Shown here: piece after piece, positions 1 through 53,300 of the stretch
Position numbering within the stretch: position 1 is the first letter of the stretch
Layout of the letters: each line of letters starts with the position of its first letter
Source of the DNA: Apostichopus japonicus
Lineage: Eukaryota > Echinodermata > Holothuroidea > Aspidochirotida > Stichopodidae
Reading direction: 5' to 3'
NCBI RefSeq assembly: GCF_037975245.1
Contig: NC_092564.1
Coordinates: 8,405,984 to 8,469,983 of the forward strand
DNA: 64,000 nucleotides
The notes under the pieces: model-generated
Databases searched by the model: none
Seen by the model: only the letters and a program-made list of their open reading frames with translations
What the model was told of the DNA's origin: nothing
Made by a program: the position numbers and the translations under genes

Positions 1-325
1 TAAATAGTGATACCAGTTAACAGCAAACTGGCAAAAATGTTTCTATGGTATACTCTTTCATAATTCAACATACTTTTCTGTTCTTGTAGAATGCTTAAGA
101 GAATCACTTGTTTTTAAATAATACAATCACATTCCTTTGTTTCAAAGCTAACCATACAAATACATGGGTCCCCCAAATGTTTTCAGTGGTATATATGCCA
201 ATCTGCAAAACCTGATTTTGTTCAAAACAATGGCAAAGCAAAAACACACCGAACAAACTGGCTTTTAATTCTTGGCAAACGGAAATAATGAAAGCAAAAG
301 AGGAGGAAAAAAACGATAAACTTAC
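1..325 (-). other. Intron DNA of gene D at the left edge
   Basis: No exon or repeat is recognised here. A B-type module would be expected next, to the left of the window. Confidence 0.6.
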
Positions 326-7742: not shown

Positions 7743-7783
<41 letters not shown>

Positions 7784-8120
7784 GATATATATAGATATAT
7801 ATATATGAAAATCGTAATGAGTTGGAAAATCAAGAATAGTGAAAAAACTTCCAGCCCCCACCGGGATTCGAAACACGGGCCTTCCGCTCTGTACGCGGAC
7901 ACCCTTACCACTATTCTATGGACGCTGATTGTATGTCCTGAGGTTCGAAACCGGAAGGTCGTAATTCCACTGTAGGCGTTTGTCACCTGTATCGATCAAT
8001 ACTAGTTCTGTTTTTGGTGACATATTTGCCTCACTCTAGAGATCAAACATGAAGCTAACCAACTCGAAATCATTTGTGATTCCTAAAGCCGGATCTCGAA
8101 AGAGATATATATATACATAC

Positions 8121-8152
<32 letters not shown>

Positions 8153-25254: not shown

Positions 25255-25812
25255 CATGGGCGCAGATCCTGGTGAGGACAGCGGGACGCGTCCCCACCAA
25301 CTTTTTCAGTAGTGGGGACATGATATACCGTGTCCCCACCAATTTGTCTTGACCAATAGCTGCATTTCAAGTTCCCTGTATTGAACTTTGGCGCAGTTTG
25401 ATCCAGCATTGTGCAAATGACATGCATCAGTTCTCATTTTATTGTATTTTATCCACACTTGTTAAATATAGGACGGAAATCGCATTTGCGGCAGTCTATA
25501 TTTGTTTTCTGGGAGAGGACCCCAGACCCATCGTACATACAAAAGTCTACTTGGATTATTTGTCCCCTGATTTTCTTTCTGCAGACGCCCATGTATTTCT
25601 CCAAACTAAATTTCTAAGCCATGAGATCTAAAACTTAAGGAGGTTTAGGAGCATCATTAGGTCTGGGAAGTGTTATTTCCAGCGATCTGGGAGGTATATT
25701 TGCCCAAAAAAGATCGTACGCTACGCGCGAACCCATGGTCCCGCTCCGCTTAGATAGTGTCATAGATCAGACACGCGTCCCCACCATTATCCAAGACTGA
25801 TCTGCGCCCATG
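25255..25812. mobile_element. hAT-like MITE, copy 2 (innermost)
   Basis: It starts CATGGGCGCAGATCCTGG and ends GATCTGCGCCCATG. Flanks are ctccaaac (25247-25254) and ctcaaaac (25813-25820), an 8-bp duplication with one mismatch. In copy 1 of the host repeat this site is unoccupied: cctccaaactgtagg runs straight on. Relative to the sibling it carries about 95 bp more between taagcc and ttagatagt, so the sibling has an internal deletion there. Confidence 0.75.
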
Positions 25813-29237: not shown

Positions 29238-29384
29238 TCATGCGAAGCATACTTTGCCCATATCCAACCCAAATTCTTGGTTATCTGCACCTAGATCACC
29301 AACTGAGAAGTCCTCAAATGGTAAGTTGTCAGTTATATCTGTCTCGTAATCCAATACGACCCTACCCCATGAGTCACTCTGGCT
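29238..29384 (-). CDS. Gene U last exon: end of fibrillar C-propeptide and stop
   Basis: This 147-nt exon includes the TGA at 29238-29240. It encodes [15 protein letters not shown] at the start and ends [14 protein letters not shown], the hallmark ending of COLFI domains (compare DQEFG..VGPVCF in vertebrate chains). It carries the last conserved cysteine. The acceptor is CCTACAG, phase 0. Confidence 0.97.
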   Translation of the reverse strand, partial: SQSDSWGRVVLDYETDITDNLPFEDFSVGDLGADNQEFGLDMGKVCFA

Positions 29385-32300
29385 CTGTAGGTGGAGAATA
29401 AAATAAAAAAAAGGTCATAGTCAATTGATGATAGGAAAATTTGTGACTTTTGCTATTTTTTTATTTTGTTCATCTTCTTGTTCATCCACCCTACTGCAGG
29501 AATGCAAATATCAGGTTTGTGATATTATCATCTACTCTAGGAATGGAATAATTAATGGTTGTGATGTCACCTACACTTTATTAGAAATAACCATTTTTTT
29601 TCCACCCCATGCTCTTAACTTTGATGTGCTCAAGTCAAAATTGCCCATTTATTAAATGTTTAGACATATTCTCTATCTAGGTTCGGACATAACCTTTATC
29701 GATCATTGCACAATAACATGCATCATAACAAGAATTCATTAACGACTCATCCAACACACAACCTATAGAGGATTAATTATGCATAGCTTTTATGACTATG
29801 GAGTACACAAACGGATATGATACTTGGCCCAAAAACATGGAGCTCTACCTTAAATGTGGTAAAGAAATAAATAAAATAAATAATAAATCATAAATAATAA
29901 ATATACTTGGGATGGAAGGGAGATTTACCTGGCAGGTATTTTCAAGGATTTGATAATCCCTCATGACATCTTCTCTGCTGTTCAGGAATTCTAGGTTAGC
30001 AGCTACATTTCGGCAATAGAATGTCACAGACTGCTTGGCGCTTATTGAGAGCAAACGAAGGAAGACCAGTTGAGATTTCTCAGCATATGTGAATTTCTCT
30101 CCTCCTCTCATAGAGCTGTAATAAATCCTCTTGGGTTTGCCTGTGTACCAGGTGGCATTTGTAACCTGATAATAGTAGTCAAATTGAAATTGAAATGATC
30201 AAATTCATTTGATATTTACGAGCTCTGTTCCATGCTATATATATATATATATGCAAGGTTTGATTTAGGAATAATGAATGATAAATAAGAAATTTTAGGT
30301 GTAAAGAGTGATGATGGATTGATGATGGTAAAAGCAAAATTAATTTTACTATAATGAAAAAAAAAACCCCAAAAAAACCCATTCACAATCTACAGATGTA
30401 TGAATTTCCCATACACAATTAATTTTACAAAATTACATGAATTAATCTTTGTGAACTTACAAGGTGTGTTTCTGGAGTCAAGCATGTTGCCTTGTTAGTC
30501 TTGTCACAGAAAGCCTGGAAAGCATCGTCGGTGCAACCGAGATTAGGATCAACCCAGTAAATTCCTGCGAGAAAAAAATAAAAAATAATAAAACTAAAAC
30601 TTAGAACAAAAAAGAATGGTTTTTGCATCATTGTGTACTCTCAACTGTTTAAAATTAAGACTAAGTCAAACAAAACTATAACCAACCAACACCCCCCTCT
30701 CCGTGTACTTTTTGCTCTTTTGCTTTAACGTAGCACACACAGAGTACAGCAGTCCACATGATTGGTCTCCAATTCCAATCATCCTTCAATCAAAGAATTG
30801 GAGTAAAAGTACTGGATATAAAAGCCCTCTTGTAACCCGGCCAGGAAAGAGAGAAGACTTGGAAGGGGCGAAAGAGGTGAAGACTTTGTGGAGAGAGAGG
30901 GAGGGAAGGGGGGGGGGCATAAAGGGGTATAATTTGTGCTAACCTGATTCTTTGTCTGGGTGATCAAGGAAAAGGTTTCTGCAAGAGCGTGTGGCATGGA
31001 GTTTGCTATCACCAGATGGTTGCTTCAGGGCCTTGAAACGGTTGTTGATGTCCTTCAGGGTAGCCAGGATTTCTGGTTCTTTGTTCTTGGCATCAACATT
31101 TGCATCATCTCCGTACTGTCGAATGAATAATCATACAACGTGTTAATTAGTTATGTCACGGATTTAGATTGCTCTACCATAAGAAACTATCTTGTCTCTC
31201 CATTCATCAAAACATAAAGAGAATTTTGGTTTCTAACTCTAAAATCCCTCCGTCCCTCCCTCTTGCATCTTTACAACAACAAAATTGTCTACCTTCTTTA
31301 AAATATCTTTTTTTTTACCAGTGCTCGACATTTGTGGGTTTGATTTTATTTACCTACCCAATGTTACATGAGCTACTTTTTCATATTTAAGTCAACAGAG
31401 ATGCTTTACTTCTTATCACCATAATCATAAGTTCCTTTACAAAATGGTTCCATTTACATTCTGAGATAAAACTTCCATAGAATGGGCATTGATTTCTAAA
31501 CACCTTAGAGGAAAACGGTTGAGGAAACCTGAAATAAAAACATTCCAAATATCATAGAAGATAAACTTACATAGTATGGGCTTGGCCCCTTATCTTGTCC
31601 ACTGACAACTTGATTTGGGTATTGTGAGTAGGTGAATCCTTGCTGTAATGAGGCAAACAGGAGAAAAAGAAATTAATTTCATGCAAATCAACAGAATAAA
31701 GTGATGCACCAAACTGTGGCTCTTGTTGTTAAGTTACAATTTTTTACACTAACTTCTTCTTCTTTTTTAATCTCTTTTAAACACATATTCCAATGAATAA
31801 ATATTTCAAATAGTTATATATCTTTATCACAACTTTCAGACACAAATAATCAACTTATTTTTACTCTCGTTATGTGACAACAATATCAACTTACCACTGT
31901 TCCTGGTGGACCCTATTGAGGGAAGAAAACAAAAGAAGACATTGTTAGGATGTTAAAAGTAATACTGTTAATAAACAATTAAACACAAACAAAAGACATA
32001 CCCATATTTAGCCAGCTTTCAAACAGGCGTAATAAAACAGAAATTTAACGTCGTATCATAGAATGTAAGGATTCATTGGTATTAAATGATGTAATCATAT
32101 TTTTTCTAGTATTTTACACTATTGCACTTTTATCACATCATCCAAGATATTGTTGTGAACTGTAAGCTTAAATTTTTTGGGGACAAGTCTCTTTAGATAT
32201 TAGATATGCAACATTAAATGGCTGAACACATGCAGATGGATATTAGGTTAGGAAGTCTGTATGATTGGAGCCTTGCCAAATACCCATCTAAAATGGCTTC

Positions 32301-35300
32301 AGCAACTCAACCACAAAAAAAAACAAAGAGTTGAGAAAGAACAAGAAAGGAACTTATTTATGCATAAGCTTGCCAAATATTGAAAAGTGAATACTCACAG
32401 GTGGACCTGGTGGTCCTGGTGGACCTTGAGAACCCTGTCGTCCTTCTGATCCTGGTGGACCACGTGGACCCTGAATGAAGCAAAAGGAAGGAATGTATTA
32501 GAAAACATCCTTACAAGAAAGACTTAATGTTCAATCAAATATAATAGAACTACTTGAACAAAATTTTAATTTCATGGGTACGACTTGCATAAATATCAAC
32601 AATTTTGCTAAATACTCTTTAAGGATATCACATTTTGAAAAAAAACCTACAATTTAAATTTATCTGGACTCTCAAAGACGATGAGTGACGAAACATCTCA
32701 ACATGATTTTCCAGATATAATTATAAGGAATGAATTGTCAAAAGTACCAGCTAACTTAGTATTCCTGTAAGTCACCATTTCTGCATTTGAAGCAACCTCG
32801 TCTTGCGACTAAAACACATTAAGTTATTATAGCAATATGTTTAGATGATTATCTTTCCACCTTTTCTTAGTCTTTTCTAAAAGTTAAATCACTGTGTCTT
32901 TTTTCAGTACATAGAGTGAGCAGCATCTGTTCATTGTTTGTAAAAGGATAGTTTTTACAAGAAAATACTGTTAAGCTTATAAGAGTGAACCGTACCTCTG
33001 GGCCATCGAAACCACGGGGGCCAGTAGCACCATCCATACCTGCAGCACCACGGTTACCTGGTGATCCCTGGAAGGCAAGAGGAGGGAATAATGAAGGGGA
33101 TTATAGAAATTTCAAAAACAAATCAGCATGTCACATCACACAATGTAAACTTATGCCAACTTCCAAGAAATCTTTCCATTACAGGTTGAACATTTATGAC
33201 ATTCAGTTCGGAAACATTTTAGTGTCCAATTTGAATGTTTCACCTTTCTCAGAGTAAACCTATTTCTTTCACATATTTTCAACATTTACTAGAAACAATG
33301 GAAATTGAAATAGGATCATATGACGATACTATGGATCCCTTCTCACTTTTGATTAGACCGGTTCTCCTTTCGTATGTACAACCCACCCCCCACCCCACCC
33401 CTACCCCACCCACACTCCCTAACCAGGGAGAAAAAGAAGCCCCTTCTATCTCCTGCATGTGGAAAGCAGACTTTTCCTGCTAAAAAGCAATCAAACCAAT
33501 TCAGGCAATACACACCATCTCTAGCTTGCAGAAGGTTCAATACATTAACAGATAAATCACATGTACTTACTCTCTCGCCAGCTGTTCCTGGGGGTCCTGG
33601 GACACCAGTGTCACCTGGAGAACCCTACACAGAAAACACAAAAAAAAAGCTTGAAGATTGATCAAATACAATATCAAATAACTGCATATATTTGTCTGAA
33701 AATCAATTTCTATACTGCAGAAGAGAAGAAATTTACTAAACCTGTAGAAAATAAATTATAAATCAAAATAAACAACCACTGTTCAGATAACCCTAGTTTG
33801 ATGAAGAATTTCTTAGTACCATGATATGATTAAAAAGAAGTAAGTTATGATCAAGATTTTTCTTCAAGCTTCAAGTTTACAACAATCGAGAATGTCTCTT
33901 CTTTTTGTACAGCAGGTCAAGATTTGTACTTGTTGAGTGACTCCTAGTTTTATGAAAATATTTCATTTTTAGACTCCTATGTGCTTGGCAGCCCAAACCT
34001 TTATCCTGTGCCTGCAACTGGTAATAGTCGCCTGACAAAAAGCAACTAGTGTCACTTCTCATGCCTATTCATAAAGTAATCGTTCTAGGCTACTAAGTTG
34101 TCATAGCACATTGCCTATTCATGAAGAAATTGTTCCAGGCTATTGAGGTATCACCTCTCATTGATAATTGTTCTAGTCTTCTTAAGGTGTCGCATTACAT
34201 GAAGTAATTGTTTTAGGCTATCAAGGTATCGCTGCTCATCCATATTCATGATGTAATTGTTCCAGGCTATTAAGGAAAAAGATAATAAACCAAGTTACTT
34301 ACAACAGGTCCTGTCAAACCTTGGAGACCAGTGGGTCCTTGATGACCTTTAGCACCCTATGAAAGAAAACCAAAGTGAAAAATGAAAATATTACTCTGAT
34401 GATGTGATTTGATTTATGTATTTAATACAACATGAATTTTGTTTGTTATTTCAGTATAATTGCAAAACTTTGTTAATCACACATTCTTCAACCTATCTGA
34501 ACGGGCAAGTCTTAGCATCGACGATACTTCTTTATGAAGAGACTATACCACAATGACAAACCATTTTTTCTCCCCTTTAAGTCATTTTTTTCACATGGCA
34601 ACTAAATATTAAATTGTGGTTTCATAAAATTATCATGTGTATTCTTTTCAATGGCACTAGAATGGCTGTTGAGACTATATGACACTCACCTGTGGGCCAG
34701 ATGGACCACGTTCACCAGTTGCACCAGCAGGTCCAGTTGGGCCCTGAGAGAGAAGAAATAGGTTATCATAATTAATTTTTTTTATACAATATTTCTTTAT
34801 ATCAATTATTTATTTTAATTTGTTATTCCAGCACACACTTGCTGTAGGGTGAGTTTAAGGCTTTGTGTATGCAGTAATCAACAAATCAATTAAGCAAATT
34901 AACATAGCACCTAAATATCCAAAGCCAAGCTATATATGTTCAGCGGGGCTTACGAGACAAGTAAATGCTTTTGAGAACAGAAAATCTGAAGTTTCCTTTT
35001 CAAAGTATTGACATTTGGAGCTGTTTTAAAGTCAGTGGGAAGTATATTACTAAGAGAAAATTAATGCTAAAGAGAGCTGAATCAAAAATATAAATCATTC
35101 TTCATACTATTACTGTCTAAATCTGAGCAACACTAAGTAAACTTCACACACAATGACAGTTGTTTTTTAGTACTAACTGAGGCCAGTGTAAATGATGAAC
35201 AGAGAGAAATTGCTTTTAATCATGTTTAACATAAGCTGATAAAAGCTGTCGACTTACAGTTGGTCCAGCAGGTCCACGTTGTCCAGCAGGTCCTTGGGGT

Positions 35301-38300
35301 CCAGTGGCGCCTGGGGCACCAGCTTCACCACGCTCTCCTGGGGCACCATTTTGTCCAGCAGCCCCCTGTCATAAAAGATGTCAAAGAAACTTGCAGGCAG
35401 GTGATGGACACAATGTAAATCAAACTGGAAATGACTTTTGCAAGCATACTTTGTGAGAAAAAAAATATATATATCGACTTGAAACTTTTTCATAAAAGGT
35501 TTGTGTACATCTTTTCATTTAATAGGTAGAGATTTTTATATCTTTAGGTGGGAATTAAATCTTGACTTCTTTAGGGTAGACAGTGATCACAAACCTGAGG
35601 TCCTGGGCCACCTTGAGATCCTGGGTTACCGGTTGCACCAGTGTCTCCCTTCTCACCACGTTGTCCGGCTGGGCCTTGGGCACCATCACGACCATCTTCA
35701 CCCTGAAGATCATAAAATTAAGCAACTTTAATAATAAAGATTATACCAAATAATATTCTCTTCTCTTCAGCAAAAAAATCGTCAGAGAAAGGTTCAGTAT
35801 ATGGAATGAAACCCATTCAGATCATAACTGAAATCTGCTTCCATTTCTTCAAACAGTGTCAACGCATAAATATTTTAACAAATGAATAATTGCTTTTGAC
35901 TCTGTCTTTAATTCTACTATATAAACTCTTTTGGAAACTTTTAGTGGGGTAACTTTCCTTACATATTAATTACTTTACAGAGTTTTTGCTTAGCTTCATT
36001 GCTTCACACATGTATTGACTCTCTACAACCTAATTTTGACTGTGAAAATCTCTTTTGGACACAACTTCCTTTTATATATTCAAGACTTAATGCAGGTCCT
36101 ACAGATTTTCCAGTTATGGAGACTTTGTATTTTCTGAGCATCAAATAGTCTTTGCTTCAAAGGATTCAGGAAAATTGTGTGGCAACAATGTAAATATTTC
36201 TGTAAATTAGTGCAGCCCAAAATTCTTGAGTTGAATAAAAAGGAAGCCAAAAAAAGCGAGAAGTGTTAGCTCAGTGGTTAACACCAATGCCTTTCAATCG
36301 TAAGGTCCCCGTTTCGAGTCACTCCAAGATTAATGTATGTCGTCCAGTTACAGAGTTGTTGAAAATTAACAATAACTAATCATTGACGTTAAATATGAAT
36401 GTAAGAGACTGACTTTGGCCAGCTTGCGGCTTTGATAAGCCAATGAGACTTCTTTGTGAGTTCCTGCTTGCAGGATGATCTAATATACATACAATACATA
36501 CAAACAAATGATTTTACTCACATCTTGTCCATTGGCACCAGCTGCACCAGCAGGTCCTGGAGCACCAATAGCACCAGGAGAACCACGGTTACCTTGAGAT
36601 CCTGGGGAACCAGTTGCACCTTGTTCACCCTGTGAATGTTTAAGAATGCCATGGCATTGTAATCCAATTAAGGCAACAGAAGTTCACTTAAACATGTTAA
36701 CGATGTTTCACTATTAAACACACGCAACTAACAGGAACTGGGTGACAGAGTAATTGGAATTAAATTACTACTAGCTTGTATTTGGAATGGAATGTAACCT
36801 TCCTGGAAATTAGAGCCTCGTTAATTATTTTCTCTTCTTGACTTTACTGTTATGGCCATTTGCTGACAAATATATACGATTCACACTCTAAGTTTTTTTT
36901 TCATGGAATCAAGACTGTGGTATAAATCTTTGATACATATGCTCTCCTTAGGGACACATTTTTTGATTAATTATTGACTAATATTGATATTTTTGCAACT
37001 ATCATTATTCTTGAGTGATGATACAACTAAAATATCACCAGAAAGCGTAGATTGAATATCATTGTCAAGAATGAAATGTTATACTTACAGGACCGCCTGG
37101 TGCTCCTGGGGGTCCACGTGGGCCCATGCTACCGGCAATACCCTACAAATATGAAATGTTAAAAAATTAGATTAGAGAAGGGTTCTCAACTGAAGCTCTA
37201 TCTGACAAACCTCTCACAGCAACAACAAAAAAACAACAATAACAGCAGTAGCAAAGTGAATAAATATAACCTGAAACAAGTTACAAACAAAAAAACTGAC
37301 TGGGAAAATATAATAAACTATAGAATACAAAACTGGATCATGCTCACATGCTCTCAGGGAATCCTGAGCATTGTCACTATGACTGGCAGTATCGGCAAAG
37401 AATAGGCCAGATAGGGATAGCCAAGAAAAATAAGGGGTGGATAGCTCAGATGGGAGAATCCTGGGTTTGTAATCCAAGAGGTTCGAACTGGATTAAATCC
37501 TGTTCTATTCAGATAAATGGCTTTGCTCTTTTCCATTAAATAAAACTTTAGCGGCTGCTTAATCGATCAGATGAGCTACAACATTGAATAATCAGAGATA
37601 ACTTCGGATTAATCTATAGCGGAATTCTTGAAACCGAGATCGTTTTAAAACGTTTTGTGAGCCATCTTTAAGATCTTAAAGAGGATTCATGCTTCACATT
37701 TCTAATTGTAACACATCTGCATTAAATACGGAGTGCCCTCCTTCCGATATCAAATTCTATCCGGAACAACCAAAACTGTGAAAAAATTCAAACTTACGAG
37801 AGGTCCAGAGGCTCCTGGTGGGCCTGGAGGTCCAGCGGGTCCAGCAGATCCCTGAAAGAATGCAACAAATTGACATGGATTAACTTAAGCCTCCGTGGTG
37901 AAAAAAAAAAAAAATCGCATTTATATCATAATAACTTTTTCCTTTCTGACATACTATTAAGAATAAAGATTCATTTAGCAATATATATCCCTCAAGATCA
38001 ATCAAAATGACAATATCTTATGTCATGCATGCTCCAGGACGATAAGTTTTTTGCAAGACATTTGTTGGAAACAAGTGCACACGTATGATTCCGCTCACTT
38101 TCTCTGTTTATCGAAGAAAAGCATTTAAAAAAAGAAGAGTAGTGTATTATTTAGCCACTTACAATATCACCGTCGCTTCCACGGTCTCCCTTTTCACCAC
38201 TAGCACCTGGTGCTCCGACTGGTCCTTGGTCTCCATCGCGTCCAGCTACACCGGGATCGCCACGCTCACCCTGAGGGGAATTAAAAATAGATCGACGTTA

Positions 38301-41300
38301 CTACTTGAAACACGCCGCCTCGCAATGAATCAAAGCAGCTGTGCTACAGCTAAGTTGTAAATACTGTAATACTTTCCACTCGGCTCTCTTTTAAAGGTTA
38401 CTTCAACTTTACTTGATACAGATGCCATCAGCAACACTTAGTGATCAAAAGTGGTGAACAGTTTCTCCATATAAAGGCGACCTTTCCATAATGCAAAATA
38501 AGATTGCATTTCCTATGCACAATGTGTGACTACCTTACCTGATAATTATAACAACATATCATGTTAACGTAAGTTCTTCCTGATATAGTCAAAAAGTCGA
38601 AAAAGTGTAAAAAGTCGAAAACTTGGACTGAAACGAAGAAAGAACACATTTTAAGAGAAGGAAGAAGCAGCCCCCTCCCCCTTCCCCCCCTACCCAAATT
38701 TGGCTAATTAACTTACTGGGGCACCTGGGGCTCCAGAAGGTCCAGTTTGTCCAGCAGGCCCTGGTGGTCCCTGTGAGGAAAATGACAGATTGAATGAGAG
38801 TAAAAAATAAGACAGATGAAAGTGCACCCCCCTCATAGTTTCATAATATTATTCAGTCTATAGTTAAAATATGAGCAATATTCAAGCAATGAGGGCATTT
38901 TTGCTGTAGCATCATATTTTAATATTTCACCAAATAAACTCTGCAACCATAAACTATGTAGTTAACATATGAGCTTGACAAATATCTCCATGTTAAAATG
39001 GGATCTTCAGGATTGTTTGACGTTTCGGAAAATTTGGCAATTTCGATGGTTCATCCAAAAACTTACCAGGCACTCCTGCAGAGTGACAGAAAGAAATATT
39101 ATCTTGCAAACAAAATGATGAAGGTTCTAAAATAAAGGCAGGCCCCCTTAACTGATCGTTGGGAGTCAGAACTGTAGGTACTGATGTCACACTCACCTGG
39201 TTACCTTGTGGTCCACCAATACCTGGGTTACCGACTGGACCCTGTGGTCCAGTGTTACCAGCTTCACCACGTTCTCCTTGAGCACCTACAGCACCAGCTG
39301 GTCCCTAGAAATTAATTAAAAGAAAGAAATTAAAACATATACATAAAATGTTATCACTTCTGTGGACAATCTCGTTCAAAATTTGCTCTTTACAAAAAAT
39401 ATTTTGGTTGATTATTAGACTTCTTCTTCATTTATTCCCCAAAAGGACAATATATTCTGATAGAAGAAGAAGACAAACTTGATTGATACAAGCACTGTAG
39501 AGTCATCCCCATCCATGCATTTAGTAATGTTCCATTTCACTCAATTAGATGCATGATTAAAAACAAAAGTAAAACAAGTAATGAGGTTGATTCCATCCGC
39601 AAATCAAAATCAAAATCATGGGTTTACCTGAGCGCCTGGATCACCAGTAGCACCGGCAGCACCAGCAGGTCCAGTTTCACCACGGATACCAGAAGGTCCG
39701 GTCTCTCCACGGGCTCCAGGAGATCCTGGTCGTCCCTAAAATACAAACAATTTTACCAATACATATCAGGTTTTCACGTATCATGAGACAGGACATGTCT
39801 GTAGACACGTACTGCAACACGGACATTCCGAAGAAAATACAATAACCGAATAATGTCGTATTACTTGTTGGTAAAATCCTGGCTGCCTTTCTAATCTAAT
39901 TTGTAGATTTACCCCTGACTGCTAATAACATTCCCCATTCTAGGTTTCATGTTTTTTTTTTTTTCTCCTTCTTCTTTTACATTAGCCTCTTTGAAAGAAG
40001 TACAAAACATTCATACTAAACCATAAAAAAAAGAAAGCTTTTGAACTTTAAAGTCAACCATGAAAAAAAAAAAAAAAAAAAAAAGCAGATGAAATTTCTT
40101 TGCAGGTTCATTCACAACTGGACTTGTTTTGGTGATTTGGAAATATTTCTAACTTTTTTCCTAACAATTTTTGATCTTTGGGTGGAAGAAGTAAATTCGT
40201 TTTCTTCTTTGATACTTACAGCAGGACCTGGGAATCCTTGTGGTCCGGCTGGGCCGTTAGCACCACGAGCACCAGCGTCACCACGAGCACCTTGGGCACC
40301 GGCAGGTCCTGGAGATCCTTGGTCACCCTGTCACATGGAAAGAAGAACAAAGCGAAAGTTAACTCTGAATTCACCTCCTTTCTCTATTCTGTCTTACTGA
40401 AATTTAATTACAAGAAACCATTCTTTCAAAAGTAACACACAGTAAATACTAAATGCATCCAGGAAGCTTTATTTATTTTTGCAGGCATTGTCATAAAGAC
40501 TTTTCCTGATACAGAGGTGGCAATATCAGGTTTTGACACTGTCATCACAAATAATGAAGACATTTTAGATGCACTTTCAAACAAAGGTTTCTTTTTTTTT
40601 GGGGGGGGGGGTGGGGGGGGTTTCAATAAATAGAGTCTCTCTTTACATTGATAGGAAGCAATCATCAGTCACAATTGTTCTTTTGAGAATGTTTTAAGTT
40701 ATGTTTTATTTACCTTTTCACCTGGGCTTCCTGTAATTCCAGTTGGTCCAATGGGTCCAATTGAGCCCTGTTAGAAGAAAACAGAAAGAAAGGCATGGAC
40801 ATAAGTAAGTTGCATATCATTCAATTACTGGGTGTAAAGGAGTCTTGTCACTATGGTCACAGCAAATCAAACAGTACAAATTTAAGATATCAATTCATCT
40901 CAGATAATTATGAATCTCATGACATATCAGAACTAGCAGAAAAAAGGGCAAACGATACCTGAATACTACTGTAAATGTCCTTCTGGACATATCCAAAGTA
41001 CCACTAAATCAAGTAGTGTATATACAGAATGTCATGTTATGGTGCAGGAAGAGCCCTAAACAAAAAACCCAATAGAAATAATACTATGGTGGTCTGGATG
41101 TCCATAGGAGTCTATCGGGCCACTAATTTGAATAAAGGAACTCACTCTTGGGCCAGCGGGTCCAGTTGGGCCTGGTCGTCCTTCATCACCATCTTCACCC
41201 TATTGGAAGAAAAAATATGACCAAATATCAATTAATGGGCACAAATTTATAATTTCAAGGCTTGAGGTCTCATTCTAACTGTTGTTGCTATGGCAACACA

Positions 41301-44300
41301 TTAAACTTGTTTACTGATAGATTGCACATATGGTTTCAGACACCTCTCAAGATAAAAGGATACAACTAATGTTTTCAAACGTGTTAATGGTGACAGCCCC
41401 CAAAACAATTTGGCCTACATTTCTACATACCAACTGCTATCTGACGTTCTCAACCAACCACTTCTAAGGTTAACCTATCTAAAAAATATCAAACAGACAC
41501 TTACTGGTGGTCCACGAGATCCACTTGGTCCTGGTGGTCCACGAGGACCTTGTTGGCCTCCCAAACCTGGGCCTCCTGGGGGTCCTTGTTCTCCCTTTGG
41601 TCCTGGAGCACCCTAAGTGTTAAAAATGTCAATTCAAACAGATCATGATACATTCTACAATTTTTGGGTGGTAAATTAATACAGAAATGAATGTACTAAC
41701 AAACAGCCTTTGAACCTACTCACAGCAGGACTTCTACTTCCAAGTGGTCAATAACAATAACAATAATCAACTCGGTTCCAGATTAGCTGATCCCTTGTTA
41801 AGACATGACGCTCCCTTGATTAAATTAAAATGCATGATTTTCAATCTGGTCAAGCTTCCTCCCAATAAATATCAGCCTATATATATATAATCTTCTATGA
41901 TTATCACAATTTTTTGTTGTTGAAAATCACTGATTTGGAGGTAATACTATATAGAAGGATTTGTGAAACAACAGCAATTTTTTGGTAGTGCCTACTAGAG
42001 CTTGCCCATAACTCTTCTGCTTACACAGGCACCAGTGAATGTCACTCATCTCATTATTTCGTTTCAACTGAGATAATTTGAAGTACTTACAGTGGCACCA
42101 TCTTGTCCAGCACGTCCAGAAACACCACGTCCACCTGGACGACCACTTGGACCTGGTGGGCCACGGTCACCTGGGCCACCACGCTCACCCTGGAGGGGAA
42201 AATGTACAATATTATACTGATGGTGAAGATGGATTCTTTTTGGTTTGTTCTAGTGATACAAACCAATGGAAACTGCAACTTAAAAAGAAAATATTCTTAT
42301 GTTCTTCATGAAGAAATTTTCAGATATACAGTTGATACTATATATTATCATTTTACATTATTGGAAATCTAGCATTATAAAACATTTCAGTAGATAATTT
42401 GCATGAATGTACGTTTTACACTGTTTTGATACATGCAGGTTTGAATGAATTCTTTGGCCAGTTGCCTAACATTTCCAGGGCCAAAACGACATATACTTGT
42501 TGGTGCTTATTGGTTAGTTGAATTCATTATTTGACAACTTACACGATCACCAGGGTTGCCAGGGGCACCAGTTTCACCTTGTGGGCCAGCGTCACCAGGG
42601 GCACCAGATTCACCTTGTGGGCCATTTAGACCAGCTGGACCCTACAACCAAAAATAATCATGAATTACAAAAGTTCAAATTGAAAATTTACACAGTAGCT
42701 AGACTCCTCAAATTTTGACTTATGATACAGAGGTTCTTATAGATGTGACTTCGTAAGGCAGAAATTATTTAATGGTTTTGTGACTGAGCATGGCAAAGTT
42801 TCAAAGTGAATAACCTTGTTACCTGCACTAATAGTTGCACAAATTTAATCTTATGGCAGCATAACAAATCTCCACCTGCTCATACTTCTCTGTATTTCAG
42901 ATTTATACATTTTACATTAGTTTTGAAATTTGTTAAAAGCCAGTTTTCAAATATTTTGTAAGTAACTAAATAAAATCAGATGATTTCCAACTATTGATGC
43001 TGTATTACCTGTTGTCCTTGAGGTCCTTGCAGACCAGGAGCACCACGTTCACCAGCTACACCTGGAGAACCTGGAGCACCAGCAGGTCCGGGGTTACCAC
43101 GATCTCCAACCTCACCCTACAGAATAAAAAAATAAATAATCGATCATTTCTACTAATTCTTTTGTGTACAGGGATGAGCCTGGGGTAAAAACAAATCACG
43201 GAACTTTGCAATAATTGCGGTATAGGCTCCAGTTTGTGTATGGTACAGTGTGTTAGGATAATAGTTTTTGTCCCCGAGGTAGAAAAAAAATCACAGATAT
43301 TCCGCGAATTCGCGGAAAAAGCTCATGCCTGTGTGTATGACTTGCCAACCATCTATTCAAAGGTATGTGTTAGAAAATGGTGAATCAATGGGTTGGAACA
43401 CCATAACCAATTTTGTCAAGTTTTTTTCCTTGCATATTTGACCCATATTTGTGAGTTTTTTTTTTGTTTTCTATTTTCATCAGGTTACTTTCAGAGATTA
43501 TTTGCTTGCTAGCAGCAGGTGAAACACACTTTGTGTACTTTTGTACCATTTATAAACATTTCTAATCGATGTGAAAGATTTTCAGCTCACCCATCAAAAC
43601 TTTTTTCCATAACTGAAAAATAAGTTCACAATACAAGGGAGTGATCATACCTGAGGGCCAGCTGGACCAGGGGGACCTACTTGTCCATCACCACCACGAT
43701 CACCTTGAGCTCCTGGGGCACCAGTCAAACCTTGCGCTCCTGGCATACCACGCTGACCCTATTGAGAGAAACAAGGAAAGTAAAATATAAAAATTAAGGA
43801 CAGGAGGACATTGAAGACACGTTATATGGTCCCCTCAATATGTTTGAAGGGAGAGTGGGGGGTGGGGGGGGTGAGGTAAGATGACATGATACCTTACACA
43901 GAATTTTTAAATTGGGATCAAAATGACAGTCAGCATTTCTGGGCTAATCAAAAATAAAAGAATAAAAAATATTAATCATATGGCTATCCCAACGTATTGA
44001 GGGCTTATACTTGGGTGATTGATCTGGTCAGAAATAGTAGAGATATAAGAAATCTGTAATGTGTGGTTTTGATTCAGAAATCTTTTAAACCCACCACTCA
44101 TGTTGGAGTTCTTGCAACGTATTTGGCAAGAATTATCACCGTAAGTCGTAATGATAGATTATCCTAGATTATTAAGAATAAGCTGGGGGTCTCCTTGCAA
44201 GGGAAAAAAAATGAGGACAGTCTAAACAGTGGAGAGACAAGGTAGTTCAAGGAAAAAAATTAACCTACCGTTGCTCCAGTGGCTCCTTGACGACCGTTCT

Positions 44301-47300
44301 CGCCTGGTGGGCCCTGATGGTAAGATTAGAAAATGAAAGAATTACCCCCCATGGAAGTAAAGAACAATCAGTAATTGGGCTTAAAATACTTGAAAAAATA
44401 AATGCAAGCTGAAAGGACTTGTAAGTACAGAATTCAACAATGTTTGCATTGACTAATAAATTTTGAGGGACAAACATCACTCACTAAATTATTATATAAT
44501 AAATGAAATTATTATTGGTTCTTCTACAAGTCATATAGCTTCTATCCCTATAGAGAAACCGAACCACCAAAATACATCTATTGTTCATAAATAATAAACA
44601 AAGACAAGTCAAACTTCACATCTCTAGAAAAAAAAAAAAAAAAGGTATGAGAGTTTGCTACTCGACAGTGGCGAAAGTATTTTAATTGATGCCAGAAACT
44701 TACTGGTGGTCCTGGAGAGCCATCTTTGCCTTGTTTGCCTGGGTTTCCACTCAGTCCCTGAAAATATGAACAAAGACAACATGAAAGATTTTATTTCATT
44801 AAATCATACCCTTTTACTCTTAAATTATACCCTTAAATCATACCCAAGCAAGTTATGCTTGCAGGAGGATCTAAAGTACATACATACAATCCATACTTAC
44901 TGTACACACAATGTAAAACTAGCAAAAGCAGGCGTAGTGTTGGAAAGATCATGAATCAGTTGCAGTATTTCACAGGGCCTGTTTTTGGAGTTTCTTTTTT
45001 TTTTGCTATATTTTTGAGACTAAATTACTCTTCATCCCCATATTCCTCCAGCCCCCAATCTTAATGATCCCAGGCTTCATGGATGTTGTTGCCCCCTGGT
45101 TAATTGAAGTAAATCCATGCATAAAGGGGATTCATTAAGAAGGGGGTCAAAACAGATGTTTGTTGATCAAAACTTCTGTGGAAGAAAACCTCCAAAGGCT
45201 AAGAGAGGAAAAAGTCTTCATGTGGGTGTTTTTTTTCATTGCATAGGGAAAGATGCATCTTCTTACAAATATTACAATGCTTTTAATAAGGAAAGGACAT
45301 GATAACCTACCCTTGTTCCTGGAAGTCCTGGGTCTCCGTTACGTCCTGGTTCACCACGAGAACCCTTGGATCCTGGGGATCCTGGTCCACCTCGAGCACC
45401 AGTTTCTCCCTTTGCACCGGCAGCACCGGCAGGTCCAATGGAACCTGGGGCTCCGAGTTGGCCCTACAGGAGGAAAGTAAGGCAGTGTGCAATGACTAAA
45501 TCATAACATAATAATATTCAAGATATGTCACAAGTACCATCCAATGAACAAACAGCTTTACATTGGCACCTGGGGCTCCGAGTTGGCCCTACAGGAGGAA
45601 AGTAAGGCAGTGTGCAATATACTAAATCATAACATAATAATATTCAAGATATGTCATGAGTACTATCCAATGAACAAACAGGTTTACATTGTCATATCAC
45701 AGAATGAGGTTAAGTCTTTTTAATTTTTATAAACAGCAGTTCTTTCTATCTACACATATAGCTAGACAAGATATTTAGTGTGATATATATCATACAATAA
45801 TCAGCCACTATTGAATAACTCAAAAGGTACGTGTGCAAGTAGATCAGCAAATTTTTTTACTCCAAAGATCAAGATGTAACTTACTCGATCTCCAGCTGGA
45901 CCTTGAGGTCCAGCAGGTCCAGTTGAACCACGTGGTCCCTAAAAAAACAAAAACAAGAATAGATGAATAATTCGTACTTAATTATGCTAAAGTATTAAAT
46001 AATATTAATGTTTATCAATATTCATTGCTTGCTCTATGGATACTTTTCATGCAGTGTAATTCCACTATTATTAAGTTAAAGTGGCCAAGACCGGTCTATA
46101 TTCCAATGTACACTATGAACAAAAGGCATCCAAAGGAGCCCAAAAGGAAAGAACTATACACTCTAAGAATCATACACACTTAAGATATGCACTCTAAGAA
46201 TCATACAAACACACTTAAGATGTTCACTCTACGAATCATACACACTAAAGATATACATTCTAAGAATCATTCATAAATACTAAAGATATAAACTCTAAGA
46301 ATCATACACACTAAAAATATACACTCCAAGAATCATACATACACACTAAAGATATACACTCTAAGAATCATACATACACACTAAAGATATACACTCTAAG
46401 AATCATACATACACACTAAAGATATACACTCTAAGAATCATACATACACACTAAAGATATACACTCTAAGAATCATACACACTAAAGATATACACTCTAA
46501 GAATCATACATACACACTAATGGTATACACTCCAAGAATCATACATACACACTAATGGTATACACTCTAAGAATCATACATACACACTAAAGATATACAT
46601 TCTAAGAATCATACATACACACTAAAGATATACACTCTAAGAATCATACATACACACTAAAGATATACACTCTAAGAATCATACATACACACTAATGGTA
46701 TACACTCTAAGAATCATACATACACACTAATGGTATACACTCTAAGAATCATACACACTACAAAATATTGCAGTCGAAAAGAGAAAAGATAAAAGCAAAA
46801 CCTGCATTGCTTGACAAGTTGCTCAGTTTCTCTGCACATTTTTTAAGGATTGAACAAGTAATAAAATGATAATGTGCATACCCTCTCGCCGCTAGCTCCA
46901 TTTGCTCCTGGTGGGCCTTGTGGGCCAACATCACCCTGAAATAAAACAAACAAAAGGTGTAAGATGGATAAGTTTCAGAAGGACCATTGCATCAAACCCC
47001 CCCCCCCCCAAACAAGACATGGTTAAAAATGGTTGAATAATACTACATTATCACCCCAGCTTAGCTAAATCAATTCAGCTTAGCTAAATCTATTTAAAAC
47101 TTGTCTGGTTAAGTCCAATCGAAACAAACTTATAGCCTCGTATACAAAACAGAACTTACAGGTAGTCCGGTGGGTCCTTCTTCACCTTGTTCACCGGGGG
47201 CACCAGCGACACCTTGGTCTCCCTTAGATCCAGCAGGTCCTTGGCTTCCTGGGGCTCCCTGAATTAGAACAGAGAAGCAGACAGTAGAGAATAAATGTCA

Positions 47301-50300
47301 GCAGCGAAAGGCTATTTTTCACTTTGTATCAATCAAGCGATGTGGAAAAGAACACATTACTTAAGTATCCCAATACATCCACCGTAAAAAAACCACTCTC
47401 TAAGATTGAAACATTTCTTGAAGAATGATAGCATTGGTTATTTTTCAGTAAGAAATACTTTTTACATCGCCTTTATTCTCATTAAAGGCATTGCATGGCA
47501 AATCTTAAACATAATCCAGACCGAACCTCCAATTTGTTGGAAAATTCTTAATCAGTTTTGCCTTTACTTCACACACGTTCCCAAGATGCCACAAATTTCT
47601 TGAAATCCCTTCACACCACCACCACCTCCACTCTTTGGGAGGATTTTATTAAACGTGTAATGTGGGCCATATGGAGTCACACAATATACATGATTAAGTG
47701 TATTCAGAATAGCACCCTTTGTGAGGAATATAGTTCAAGATAATCATTGGCCCCTACTTCAGTATAGATACCTCAGGTTCAGACTTCCCTGTGTTGTTAC
47801 ACAAGTCAGTGCAAGACAATGTCTCTATTAGAAGTTATTCATTACTTAAGCAGTGACACCCCAACGTAAATTATCACAATTTGTCAATGCAGCAGAGCCT
47901 AGCATGTCTAACATTAAACGACCCAGTATGTACGGTAAGATGTATATCAGGCAAGCAATGTAGTATCTACATCAGATAAGTCCCCAAATGGAGATTGAAG
48001 TTGATTAAACTAAATGTTTTTTTTGTTTGTTGTTTGTTGTGTGTTTTTTTGTTTTTTTTTTAAAGGGGGGGGGGGGGGCAGTTTAGCTTATTGTTGATCT
48101 ATACATTAACCATACCACATATATATGTAAGAGACCTTGTTATTTAACTTACATTGGGTCCACGTAGTCCTGAGAATCCGATAGGACCTTGGGCTCCGGG
48201 TGCGCCCTAAATGAAAGAGAAAAGGTCAGGTACGAAGTAAGACCAATGCGGACTAATGCAATTTTTGAATAAGGATTACTTACCATATGAGATGCTCAAA
48301 AATGTCTCCAATATCACTAAGATTAATGGATTAAATGTCAAAAAAAAAAACATCTGCTAACCTATTAAACATGAGTAGCAAAACAAGTTAAATATTTCAT
48401 TAATGGAATTGAGGAATACAGCAGAAGGTATACTTACAGATGCTCCCTTAGCTCCTGGGTTACCATTCATTCCTGGAGCTCCTTGGAGTCCAGCCTGTCC
48501 CTGTTGTCCCTCTGGGCCACGCTCACCACGGCTTCCCTGTTGGCCTTGTGGGCCAGTAGCACCTGGAGATCCGGCATCACCTTTAGGTCCAGAACTTCCT
48601 GGGACACCTGGGGCTCCTGGAATTCCAGCACTTCCCTGGAAAAAGGAAATGACAAAAAGCAAAATTAGGATTTTATCAACTGACATAATCAACAACAAAA
48701 ATACACTTTAGTAGTCGCTACCAAATGTTTGTAACATCCTACCACATTGTACCTTAACAACAAAAAATGTTTCAATATCTGTTTCACCTATTACTAGTTT
48801 TAATCGATGGAACTTTGTCATAAAAATTCATTACAATTTCTCTCAATAATATTTTATTTCACTATTGACAAGTTTGAACTAAACTATGAAAAGCATTGTT
48901 AAAGGTAATTACAACAGTATGAAGACAATGCCTCATTGACATGAACATTCATGTGGTGCGACATATGTTGCTTGATAAGCACATTGCATATACAGGACTA
49001 GTCCCTTTATTACACCCAATCTCTCTTCATGATGGTGACATCACTTCCAAAGTTTAGCAAAAAAAAAGAAAAAAGAAAAAAAAAAGATGTCCACTCACTG
49101 GAGGTCCTTGGGCACCTGGAGCACCATCAGATCCAGCAGGTCCCTACAAACAGCAGGAAAAATATATATATATATATATTACTTCCACAGTAAAAATAAG
49201 AAAATGGTTAATATATTAAACAAGTTTGATTGAAATTCAGGATATTAGTTATATCAGTCCTAATCTTCCTTTTTTCTTGTGTGGCATATACAAAACACTG
49301 GCTCGACTGCTCGACCAGCAGAAAGTAACAGATTAAAATAATTTCATAGTCTAACATACCACCCTCCTTCTCCATGAAGCAATCTCTGAAAGCAATATGC
49401 ATACAATCACTTAAAAAAAAAACCCACTCCATTTGCTTCTACATCGTTTTCTTGATTCCATGCATCAACAAATTCAAAGAAGGAAACAAGAGTTCATCTG
49501 AGTTCTACAGAACATATTCCTCCAGGTCTACCTGAATCTACTCATTATTTCTCACATACAATTCTGATACATCCTCCTCCCACTACCGCCACCCCCCCCC
49601 CCCCACCTCCCCCAAACCATCCTCTTCTCCCTAAAAAAAAATAGACCTGATTAAATGAAGCTATGTAACCAAAAAATAACCACATGAGCCAAGTATCCAC
49701 TGCTGCAATATGTTAACAATTTTCTCTTCTTAAATCGAAATAATTCTTACAAAATGGAGCAAAGAAAACTCACAGTATCACCAGAAGGTCCAGTTCGGCC
49801 TCTCTCACCAGGGGAACCCATTGGACCCTGAGAAGAGAGAATATGAAATTGCAATAAAGTCATCATCAGCCCTTGTAAAATTACACAATATTGAGGGTAT
49901 AGGTTGGGCATGTTTGGTTCATTTCAATGTGGCATATCTCAGTGGAAGTACAGTACGCAGTTTTGTTAATGTTTCTCTTGATGTTATCGAAATGGAAACT
50001 AAAAATAAGTGTTAATACCAAGAAATACCAGAAAGCAACTTACAGCAGGTCCTGGGGCTCCAATGGATCCAGCTGCTCCATCGTTACCACGCTCACCATC
50101 GTCTCCTCTCTCTCCCTTTTGGCCTGCTCGTCCAGAGTAACCTCTGTGTCCCTTAGGGCCGGATGGTCCTGGGAATCCATTTTGTCCAGCTGGTCCAGGT
50201 GGTCCTGAAGGCCCTGCTGGTCCTGGGTTACCATTGGCACCATCCTTTCCTGCAGATCCTGGTCGTCCTGGGCTTCCTGCAGGTCCGGTTAATCCAACAG

Positions 50301-53300
50301 GTCCAGTTGGTCCTTGCTCACCTGGTTCACCAGGTGCTCCAGTCAAACCGGCAGGTCCCCTCAAACCAGCCTGTCCTGGTGGACCACGTTGGCCTGGTTC
50401 TCCAGCCATCATAGCTTGAGGATATCCCAAACCAGCTGGCATGACAGGTCCCTTGTATTGTTGTGAAACCTGGGCTTCAGCAGTCAGTTGTCCTGATGGT
50501 CCTGGGGGCCCTGGAGGACCTGGTGGACCAGGAAGTCCTGGGACACCATCAGCACCGGATCCACCCTAAGACAATTGAGAGTTTACTTTCAGTTAATATT
50601 CATAGCAAAAAGCTAGCTCAACGCACGATCATAATTAAAAACTTCAGAAATGCATGAGGAGAAAGCAAAGCATTATGTTCATAATTTCTGATCAGTACTG
50701 ATTACATCTTTTACTGCAAAATGGCCAAAATGCTTACTCTGGGTCCTGGAATACCGATATTTCCTTTTGGTCCAAGTGGTCCCCTGTCGCCCTGTAGGAG
50801 AGAGGGAAAGAAATAATGGAAGGTGAAAAGTTTGATGACATTCAAAATGGCTGGAAACTTGAAAAGAGTTGAAATTTGATTCTAGAGGCATCATTGAGAT
50901 ATCATTAAATCATTCCTATAACCAGCTGGGTTTGTTTTACGGCAAGTATGGCACTTCACTAACTAACATATCACCAAATTCACAGACTTACACTAGCGCA
51001 AGACCTTATTCATACAAATACATATTAGTATATTATCAGGTATTAAACTTGCAATATATTTTTTGGGGGGGAAAATAGGTATAAAACACATCTGTGGCAA
51101 CACAAGAAGCAACAACCCTAGCAATAAGTTCATGCACCAGCATGCAATATGTCATCCAACATCCTGGGTTTTTTGGTATAGTAGGAAGATGTATAGAGTC
51201 ACATCACTAATGGTTATTATGGTAATACTCACAGGTCCACCTCTACCGCCTGGGGGGCCTGGAGGTCCGGGAATCAAATCCTGAGAAGGGGAGGAAGAGA
51301 AAGCAAAGATGTTAGATGAGGCTTCAAAAATAGGGCAAAGATAAACATTCTACCAAGACTGTTTATGAGGAATAAATTATCTTTCCCAAGGTTATTTTGT
51401 CGTCACCTCAATGTCCTTTTTCTACCAATATATTTATAACTAATGCTTTGGCTTGATACTGCATGCAGTGTGGATTATTTGACCTGACATAAAACTGGGG
51501 GTCAAACTGGAATAAACCTTAATACATGACTTTACTAAAGAGATAGGGGAGAGTGAAGTAGAAGAAGGCAATGAAAGAAGACATTTAGAGCTTTAGAACC
51601 AAGTCAACAAAAAGATGATAAAACACTTACTCCACTTCCAATAACGGGTGTCTGGCCTGGTTCTCCTTTGGGGCCTTTTGGGCCAGTTAAACCATGCTAA
51701 AGAGATGGAAAAGGTATAACAGTGATCAAATGTGAATAGGTCTCAAGAATAAAAAAAGTGTTATATGATCTTGGTCCATGTCACATTTAAGAAATATATT
51801 CGCAATATTAACAATTTAGACTCCTAGCTGTGCCTTTACCTATCATTTTCTTCTGAGAAGTAAACAACAAATTCTATGGAAAAATTTCAACAAAGATATT
51901 TCCATCTTTAGATCATAATTGGAACATAAAGATATTCTTTTGATTATGATACATTAAATCCAACTTGAAAAATATTAATTGGTATGCAAATAAATTGAAT
52001 TGAAGTATAACTTGATGAGTTGAGAATTACATTTGTCATTTATAGGGGGAAAAAGGGTATGTTTATCAAGAAAGCACTCACCACATCTGATCATTCCCAG
52101 GTAAAAAGTGTGATGGGTTGAAAATATACAGGTTTCAAGGAAAAGTAGTGCAGAGAAGGAGAGAAAAATGATAATTTTAGTGAAAAAAATGTACTTTAAA
52201 CGTTTCACAAGATTTTTAAGACCCTCACAAACTTGACCATCCATCTTCACCATCTTATTGTTTGATGACCGGAAAAAGAAAAAAAGATTGAGTGTGATGT
52301 GACATTTATCTTTGGCAATTTGACAAGGTTAAAATCAAACAGTTACTTACCAACAAGTTAAATTTAAAACAACATGCAACAGAAAGAAAGAAAAACCTTT
52401 CTTGGCATAAAATAAACACAAAAGATGAACAATTAAAAGTCTCATTTCATGCTATCTTAAACTTAGCTGGTCCTCATGGTGTTATCATCGAGGGGGTAGT
52501 GCATGCATCCACTAACCGACAACAGGTTTCGGTCTTTCCGCACAGTTAAGTTCCTCACAATCTCGCAAGGAACCTGGTCTAGATCCCATGAATTTGATTT
52601 TATCATTGCCTCTCATTAATTCCACACAGAGATATAGTTGCTCCTCACAGCTCAACTGGTCTCTCTCAAGCATTGTGGCTAAGTTATTAAACTCCAGGCG
52701 TTCGCCCGAGTGGATATCATAACCGGATTGCTCAATGTTAAGAAGTTGCCTCTTGAGGACATGCCTTGTGCCATATCCAGCATAGTCATTTGAGATGTAG
52801 GCTTCCATACGCCAAAGCATGTCACCTACGGCATCACCACTTTCCATACCAGCCAATATTTGCACCCCAAAAGAAAGGTGGTTTGTGTCCACGTCCCTGT
52901 CCAAGAGGCCTCCACCATTGTACAGGTCCAGTTTGGTTTCCCTAATGACTATACCCAAACAATGAACGTTGAAGCAATCGATCAGAACTCGCTCATCTGG
53001 GATGGCATTCAGTTGAAATTCAGGGTTGGGTTCTGCACCTTGAACTAGTTCAGCACAAAGATACATGATATCTCCACATTCCACTCCTGTCATGTTAAAG
53101 TAATGTTGTACATGGCCAAAGTTCATTATGCTCGGAGGAAACAACCCTGTGCTTCTTTGATTTGGGGCCAGAACTTCGGAAACCTGATTAATTCTTTCTC
53201 CAGCTCCAAATGGGTTGAGACTACCGAAGACATTAAGATTCCACAAATCGAACCCCTGTATACCACCAGACTGGAGAGATGGCGTAGCAGTTAATCTGAA

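What the first reader, a model, noticed from the sequence alone, without database searches (positions are those of the whole stretch)
31895..50403. Helix of exactly 338 triplets with vertebrate cross-link spacing
Adding the exons gives 3,042 nt, 338 Gly-X-Y triplets including a terminal GTV, with no interruption. That equals the 1,014 residues of the vertebrate alpha-1(I) helix. The two K-GH cross-link sites, GPKGHR and GAKGHQ, fall at helix residues 84 and 927, 843 apart, the same distance as residues 87 and 930 of alpha-1(I), but shifted by one triplet. The shift means one triplet fewer at the N end and one more at the C end, while the spacing that governs quarter-stagger cross-linking is unchanged.
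Basis: partly seen in the sequence, partly recalled or inferred. Interest (0 to 1): 0.72.

Follow-up and report, generated by a model that had tools for sequence, protein, structure and literature searches.

The report
Ordinary echinoderm-type fibrillar collagen gene
This is the gene for a normal fibre-forming collagen of sea-urchin type whose rod has the standard length and the standard cross-link sites; the counts are right, but this is what such collagens are expected to look like.

Summary
Every number in the finding is correct. On the minus strand, 34 exons from 50403 to 31895 splice to 3,042 nt: 338 uninterrupted Gly-X-Y triplets with KGH at 84 and 927. Without gaps the helix fits vertebrate alpha-1(I) and alpha-2(I) best when shifted by one triplet; 31 of 33 helix exon junctions agree with that (COL1A1 exon sizes recalled). 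One triplet is missing at the N end and GTV is added at the C end.

About 338 triplets is the published norm, KGH sites are known across animals, and vertebrate alpha-1(V) uses lysine 84. Stagger is set by telopeptide-to-helix cross-links, and those distances are 943 and 948 here against 937 and 943 in rat alpha-1(I). The chain does encode a D-stagger of about 235 residues.

Exactly 338 assumes that an 18-nt microexon is included and a duplicated 27-nt in-frame exon candidate (45588-45562) is skipped; otherwise 336, 339 or 341. The gene has a COLFI domain lacking Cys2 and at least 15 SURF-type modules; a second VWC/SURF-type gene follows in tandem.

The parts
52515..62681 (-). 15 SURF-type four-Cys modules of the N-propeptide (14 open stretches, two modules in 53450-52515); by eye, the end of a further module at about 64000-63957
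   Evidence: translations; own HMM built from these modules, so their recovery is by construction; no Pfam hit at E 0.01 in the 6 stretches scanned; the name SURF comes from PMC2852846 and not from a model
51631..51696 (-). start of minor triple helix ([16 protein letters not shown]...)
51233..51280 (-). minor triple helix exon
50738..50791 (-). minor triple helix exon
50044..50565 (-). junction exon: end of minor helix, N-telopeptide with YKGP lysine (17 residues before helix residue 1), and helix triplets 1-40 (50403-50044) including K84 in GPKGHR
49774..49827 (-). helix triplets 41-46
49099..49143 (-). helix triplets 47-51
48438..48635 (-). helix triplets 52-73
48153..48206 (-). helix triplets 74-79
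47160..47258 (-). helix triplets 80-90
46882..46935 (-). helix triplets 91-96
45885..45938 (-). helix triplets 97-102
45562..45588 (-). 27-nt in-frame exon candidate GQLGAPGAN inside a 126-bp tandem duplication (45439-45691); not in the 338-triplet model
45311..45463 (-). helix triplets 103-119
44704..44757 (-). helix triplets 120-125
44269..44313 (-). helix triplets 126-130
43651..43758 (-). helix triplets 131-142
43009..43116 (-). helix triplets 143-154
42543..42641 (-). helix triplets 155-165
42091..42189 (-). helix triplets 166-176
41505..41612 (-). helix triplets 177-188
41146..41199 (-). helix triplets 189-194
40714..40767 (-). helix triplets 195-200
40220..40327 (-). helix triplets 201-212
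39628..39735 (-). helix triplets 213-224
39197..39304 (-). helix triplets 225-236
38717..38770 (-). helix triplets 237-242
38163..38270 (-). helix triplets 243-254
37798..37851 (-). helix triplets 255-260
37089..37142 (-). helix triplets 261-266
36522..36629 (-). helix triplets 267-278
35595..35702 (-). helix triplets 279-290
35258..35365 (-). helix triplets 291-302
34690..34743 (-). helix triplets 303-308
34303..34356 (-). helix triplets 309-314, K927 in GAKGHQ
33571..33624 (-). helix triplets 315-320
32996..33067 (-). helix triplets 321-328
32399..32470 (-). helix triplets 329-336
31895..31912 (-). 18-nt microexon GPPGTV, helix triplets 337-338
31571..31642 (-). C-telopeptide with DKGP lysine (18 residues past the helix)
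30944..31115 (-). end of C-telopeptide and start of C-propeptide; YG/DDAN resembles the vertebrate C-proteinase site YYRA/DDAN (that site is recalled)
30461..30564 (-). C-propeptide exon
29929..30165 (-). C-propeptide exon; carries most of the gaps against vertebrate C-propeptides
29238..29384 (-). last C-propeptide exon with stop codon (KVCFA*)
   Evidence: COLFI domain as a whole E 7.9e-56

Best explanation
The locus is one gene for a clade-A-like fibrillar procollagen of echinoderm type. Three chains assemble through the COLFI C-propeptide, fold into a 1,014-residue rod, lose their propeptides and align in fibrils at multiples of D (about 234-236 residues). Telopeptide lysines (N: YKGP, C: DKGP) are oxidised by lysyl oxidase and join helix lysines 927 and 84 of neighbours staggered by 4D. 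The one-triplet offset from alpha-1(I) arises because the single triplet encoded by the vertebrate N-terminal junction exon is absent and one extra triplet (GTV) is added by an 18-nt microexon at the C end. Shown here: sequence, register, exon correspondence (on recalled COL1A1 sizes), D periodicity, domain content. Inferred: assembly, cleavage, hydroxylation and cross-linking.
For: 338 clean triplets and K84/K927; single ungapped register; 31 of 33 exon boundaries on ancestral 45/54-bp boundaries at shift +3, 23 of 33 strictly, hypergeometric P 9e-17 for the strict count (COL1A1 sizes recalled, and one helix triplet taken for the first end exon as in PMC4450265); COLFI E 7.9e-56 and alignment to solved C-propeptides of alpha-1(I) and alpha-1(III); minor helix, and telopeptide lysines in the XKGP pattern of PMC5120351; hydrophobic D comb Z 6.0, reached by 0 of 150 triplet shuffles; 15 SURF-type modules.
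Against: No RNA or protein evidence. No echinoderm relative could be compared (no genome held for the window), so echinoderm origin and orthology rest on domain anatomy and literature. The C-terminal site reads KGHQ rather than the usual KGHR. In the combined charge-plus-hydrophobic score the strongest single staggers of this chain were 551 and 745-746, not multiples of D, and charge alone gave no significant D in 228-241 (p 0.40).
Confidence: 0.92

Rival explanations
1. The helix is not fixed at 338: the 27-nt candidate at 45588-45562 is spliced in (341 triplets), and/or the 18-nt microexon is skipped (336, or 339 with the 27-nt exon), giving helices of variable length.
For: The tandem duplication copied the acceptor and start of exon 45463-45311. 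The copied acceptor has the same 23 scored letters as the real one, which scores 14.7 bits when left out of training (real acceptors: median 13.8). The copy has an in-frame 27-nt Gly-X-Y exon ending at a GT. In 15,467 nt of helix introns (acceptor at least 6 bits, any GT donor, length a multiple of 9 up to 198) it was one of two hits; the other was a single 9-nt triplet.
Against: Its donor is weak (2.6 bits; only 2 of 34 real donors score lower), and two out-of-frame GT sites in the same stretch score higher (4.4 and 5.9 bits). Very short exons tend to be skipped (general knowledge). Three extra triplets would move K927 by 9 residues. Exact 338 agrees with vertebrate exon homology.
Confidence: 0.08
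2. The match in length and lysine spacing is a coincidence of independent gains and losses of triplets.
For: Low sequence identity (26% at X/Y positions with alpha-1(I)); in 1 of 12 segments against alpha-1(I) and 2 of 12 against alpha-2(I) another shift is slightly ahead.
Against: The +3 register is best or tied in 11 of 12 segments against alpha-1(I) (two ties) and in 10 of 12 against alpha-2(I) (two ties); 31 of 33 exon boundaries agree.
Confidence: 0.02
3. The tandem duplication at 45439-45691 is an assembly or allele artefact and the true gene lacks it.
For: Copies are 94% alike; only one assembly seen.
Against: The copies differ at several positions, which a simple assembly error would not create (inference). 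The 338 count is unaffected either way.
Confidence: 0.2

Closest known systems
Sea urchin 1-alpha and 2-alpha fibrillar procollagens (PMC2852846, sections 5, 6, 7 and passages)
   Same: SURF modules before a minor triple helix, standard helix, COLFI; [quoted passage not shown]
   Different: No sequence could be compared; this chain has 15 modules plus what looks like the end of another at the window edge; orthology to 1-alpha, 2-alpha or 5-alpha not settled
Vertebrate alpha-1(I)
   Same: 1,014 residues, KGH pair 843 apart, exon boundaries (recalled sizes), COLFI
   Different: Lysines at 87/930 there, 84/927 here; telopeptide-to-helix distances 937/943 there (rat), 943/948 here; Cys2 present there, absent here; KGHR at both sites there, KGHQ at the second here
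Vertebrate alpha-1(V) and alpha-2(I)
   Same: alpha-1(V) cross-link lysine at 84 (PMC7988497, passages); alpha-2(I) lacks one inter-chain cysteine (PMC5353611, passages)
   Different: alpha-2(I) sites are 87 and 933, 846 apart; the second alpha-1(V) site was not found in the passages seen

Membership tests
Fibrillar collagen (clade A type) | uninterrupted major helix of about 338 triplets | tested here: met
   338; norm from PMC2852846
Fibrillar collagen (clade A type) | COLFI C-propeptide | tested here: met
   PF01410 E 7.9e-56, 189.4 bits against cut-off 26.2
Fibrillar collagen (clade A type) | minor triple helix and telopeptide in the N-terminal part | tested here: met
   51696-50404
Fibrillar collagen (clade A type) | 45/54-bp-derived exon structure with intact Gly codons | tested here: met
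   31 of 33 boundaries, misses at residues 984 and 1008 (COL1A1 lengths recalled)
Fibrillar collagen (clade A type) | KGH(R) helix sites and XKGP telopeptide lysines | tested here: met
   GPKGHR, GAKGHQ, QYKGP, QDKGP; patterns from PMC5120351
Fibrillar collagen (clade A type) | phylogenetic placement in clade A | not tested
   no tree built; the 5 solved hits of the C-propeptide were alpha-1(I), alpha-1(III) or fusions with alpha-1(I)
Echinoderm SURF-type procollagen | tandem four-cysteine SURF modules between VWC and minor helix | tested here: inconclusive
   15 repeated four-Cys modules before the minor helix; any VWC of this gene lies outside the window; no reference SURF model hit in Pfam
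Sea urchin 1-alpha orthologue | closest relationship to 1-alpha rather than 2-alpha or 5-alpha | not testable with these tools
   no echinoderm sequences held
alpha-2(I)-like heterotrimer chain | loss of C-propeptide Cys2 | tested here: met
   7 Cys; the Cys2 column holds Asp here. Consequence for assembly not tested

The most novel reading that the evidence does not exclude
The fibril of this animal runs on a slightly longer molecular stagger than vertebrates, about 235-236 rather than 234 residues, with no insertion in the helix. Hydrophobic self-matching peaks at D 234.7-235.7 in 12 of 12 (correlated) parameter settings against 233.0-234.0 for alpha-1(I), and both telopeptide-to-helix lysine distances are longer by 5-6 residues, about what 4 x 1.4 would need. 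Against it: in the combined score alpha-1(I) itself peaks at 235.0 with a bootstrap range (233.3-235.3) that touches this chain's 235.67 (235.0-235.7).
Probability: 0.1. Interest if true: 0.5.

Novelty: new member of a known kind. Interest (0 to 1): 0.2.

Why it matters
It is another case in which rod length, exon frame and cross-link sites are kept over a very long evolutionary distance, as published work predicts. It also shows that the ends of the helix can slide by one triplet while the rod stays in register, although PMC4450265 (passages) argues that a change in the end-to-lysine distances of 87 and 85 would be lethal; vertebrate alpha-1(V) K84 already points the same way. The longer telopeptide distances and the D of about 235 residues raise a small testable question: whether the stagger in residues is truly constant among animals.

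Tried and rejected
Tried without result: searching the window's own genome (none held); reading the original sea urchin gene paper PMC298483 (not held); finding papers on tandem SURF collagen genes in echinoderms (8 listed of 277, none on the point by title). K924 of alpha-1(V) was not found: 0 occurrences in PMC7988497. PMC10381214 on echinoderm matrix was seen in passages and gave no helix lengths.

Results against or weaker than my reading. Charge-only stagger analysis gave no significant D in 228-241 for any of the three chains (p 0.33, 0.35, 0.40), so the D result rests on hydrophobic residues. In the first, cruder score the best combs were D 234 for alpha-1(I) and 235 for this chain, but this chain's top single staggers were 551 and 745-746. 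The alpha-2(I) control was weaker than alpha-1(I): over all D p 0.24 combined and 0.067 hydrophobic, within 228-241 p 0.02 and 0 of 150. In the segment test the +3 shift was tied at 526-675 and 751-900 and just behind at 826-975 against alpha-1(I); against alpha-2(I) it was tied at 226-375 and 676-825, and behind at 526-675 by one match and at 601-750 by two. The exon-boundary test fixes the shift only together with the number of helix triplets in the first end exon; I took one, as PMC4450265 says. The phmmer alignments contain compensating gaps; I did not take these as indels.

Rejected: that the K-to-K distance controls the stagger; that K84 is a peculiarity; that the Gly-X-Y-like runs in other frames or G-rich introns are exons.

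Full report
What is there. The minus strand carries a fibrillar procollagen gene that runs from the upper edge of the window (probably beyond 64000) to a stop codon ending at 29238. In order: 15 four-cysteine modules of SURF type plus what looks like the end of another at the window edge, a minor triple helix (51696-50485), an N-telopeptide, the main helix (50403-31895), a C-telopeptide and a COLFI C-propeptide.

Check of the count. I spliced 34 exons with GT-AG introns; each begins with a whole Gly codon and ends with a whole Y codon. The product is 1,014 residues with Gly at each third position, last triplet GTV, and KGH at 84 and 927 only. The helix holds 15 lysines and only two histidines, both in the KGH sites.

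Is the correspondence with alpha-1(I) real? Against rat alpha-1(I) (PDB 3hqv_A, letters; 957 of 1,014 residues) the X/Y identity without gaps is 167/636 at a shift of one triplet and 77-114 at 21 other shifts. Against alpha-2(I) it is 145/639 against 68-101. In 12 overlapping segments of 150 residues, with 14 shifts each, the same shift is best or tied in 11 against alpha-1(I) (two ties) and in 10 against alpha-2(I) (two ties); where it is behind, it is by one or two matches. Exon boundaries give a second test: with COL1A1 exon lengths from memory and one helix triplet in the first end exon, 23 of 33 boundaries coincide at that shift, and 31 of 33 when fused vertebrate exons are split into their 45/54-bp units; at the nine other shifts tested 0 to 7 coincide. 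The recalled lengths then leave five triplets for the last end exon, and one and five is what PMC4450265 states (passages). The test fixes the shift only together with that number. The two misses are the last two boundaries (984, 1008), where this gene has exons of 72, 72 and 18 nt. So the missing triplet is the one that vertebrates encode in the N-terminal junction exon, and the added one, GTV, lies where alpha-1(I) has the first residues of its C-telopeptide.

Does the spacing set the stagger? In type I fibrils helix residue 87 is linked to a C-telopeptide and 930 to an N-telopeptide of another molecule (PMC4450265, passages). The relevant distances are telopeptide lysine to helix lysine. 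Here they are 943 (N-telopeptide K at position -16 to K927) and 948 (K84 to C-telopeptide K at 1032). In rat alpha-1(I) they are 937 and 943: chain residue 9 to 946, and 103 to 1046 (1046 from the equal-length 50-residue range for 3hqv_A, whose letters were not printed). So the claim that the governing spacing is unchanged is not right, though the change is small and could be taken up by telopeptide folding. As a direct test I scored each helix against itself at all staggers. Hydrophobic matches give a clear D comb: this chain best D 235.67, Z 6.0; alpha-1(I) 233.0, Z 6.9; 0 of 150 triplet shuffles reached either. Over 12 correlated settings this chain gives 234.7-235.7, alpha-1(I) 233.0-234.0, alpha-2(I) 233.0-234.3. 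In the combined score the gap shrinks: 235.67 for this chain, 235.0 for alpha-1(I), 234.67 for alpha-2(I), and charge alone is not significant. In the cruder combined score the strongest single staggers of this chain were 551 and 745-746, with D multiples lower in the list. The stagger is kept; a difference of one to two residues is suggestive only, because one chain of an unknown trimer was analysed and the known 234 is itself recovered only to within about one residue.

What is known. PMC2852846 (sections 5, 6, 7 and passages) gives about 338 triplets as the prototype, 54-bp exon units, SURF modules in some sea urchin chains, absence of most of the chain-recognition sequence in invertebrates, and that Cys2 or Cys3 can be missing. 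PMC4450265 (abstract, passages, discussion) treats convergence on 1,014 residues. PMC5120351 (abstract, passages, results, discussion) describes KGH(R) and XKGP sites across animals, with exceptions among sea urchin chains. PMC7988497 (passages) names alpha-1(V) K84, alpha-2(V) K87 and alpha-2(I) K933. The finding is therefore a correct description of an ordinary family member.

Two splicing choices matter. The terminal GPPGTV is an 18-nt exon of its own with good sites (acceptor 15.1, donor 9.0 bits). A 126-bp tandem duplication at 45439-45691 (94% match) copied the acceptor and the first codons of exon 45463-45311. The copy reads GQLGAPGAN, 27 nt in frame; its acceptor has the same scored letters as the real one (14.7 bits left out of training), its donor scores 2.6 bits, and two out-of-frame GT sites nearby score higher. 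If the donor is missed, the frame runs into a TAG in the intron (sequence). The plain helix is the likely product; 336, 339 and 341 triplets are possible.

Assembly. The C-propeptide has 7 cysteines; the Cys2 column holds Asp. In vertebrates alpha-2(I), which lacks one inter-chain cysteine, cannot form homotrimers (PMC5353611, passages); that this is the same cysteine is my reading of the alignment. By analogy this chain may be the partner of a heterotrimer, which is inference. With 15 or more SURF-type modules it fits the predicted long form of sea urchin 1-alpha at least as well as 2-alpha, but no sequence was available to test it.

Verdict: observation confirmed, interpretation partly supported, new member of a known kind, low interest.

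Noticed in passing
window 225-11049, minus strand: A second gene with a VWC-like cysteine-rich stretch (11049-10708, by cysteine pattern only) followed by six SURF-type modules (eight HMM hits, two pairs read as modules split by introns: 10504-10013, 7008-6559, 6054-5728 with 5299-5003, 3942-3160, 2639-2352 with 1773-1513, 950-225) lies downstream on the same strand, so two SURF-type procollagen genes seem to sit head to tail. No helix of the second gene is in the window; 4 stretches scanned had no Pfam match above cut-off.
   Followed up: partly
window 45439-45691: 126-bp tandem duplication that copies a splice acceptor and creates a 27-nt in-frame Gly-X-Y exon candidate.
   Followed up: yes
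window 31895-31912: An 18-nt microexon encodes the last two helix triplets; skipping it would give a K84 to C-telopeptide distance of 942, close to the 943 of alpha-1(I).
   Followed up: partly
window 25724-26528, minus strand: A 30-base motif (CTAAGYGGAGCGCCACCATNNNTNGGCGCG, up to 3 mismatches) occurs 3 times against 0 expected, perhaps a dispersed repeat behind the gene.
   Followed up: no
window 29929-30165: The C-propeptide is shorter than the vertebrate ones, mostly between its fifth and sixth cysteines with a further gap before the fifth; this is about where the chain-recognition sequence lies (recalled), most of which PMC2852846 says is absent in invertebrates.
   Followed up: partly
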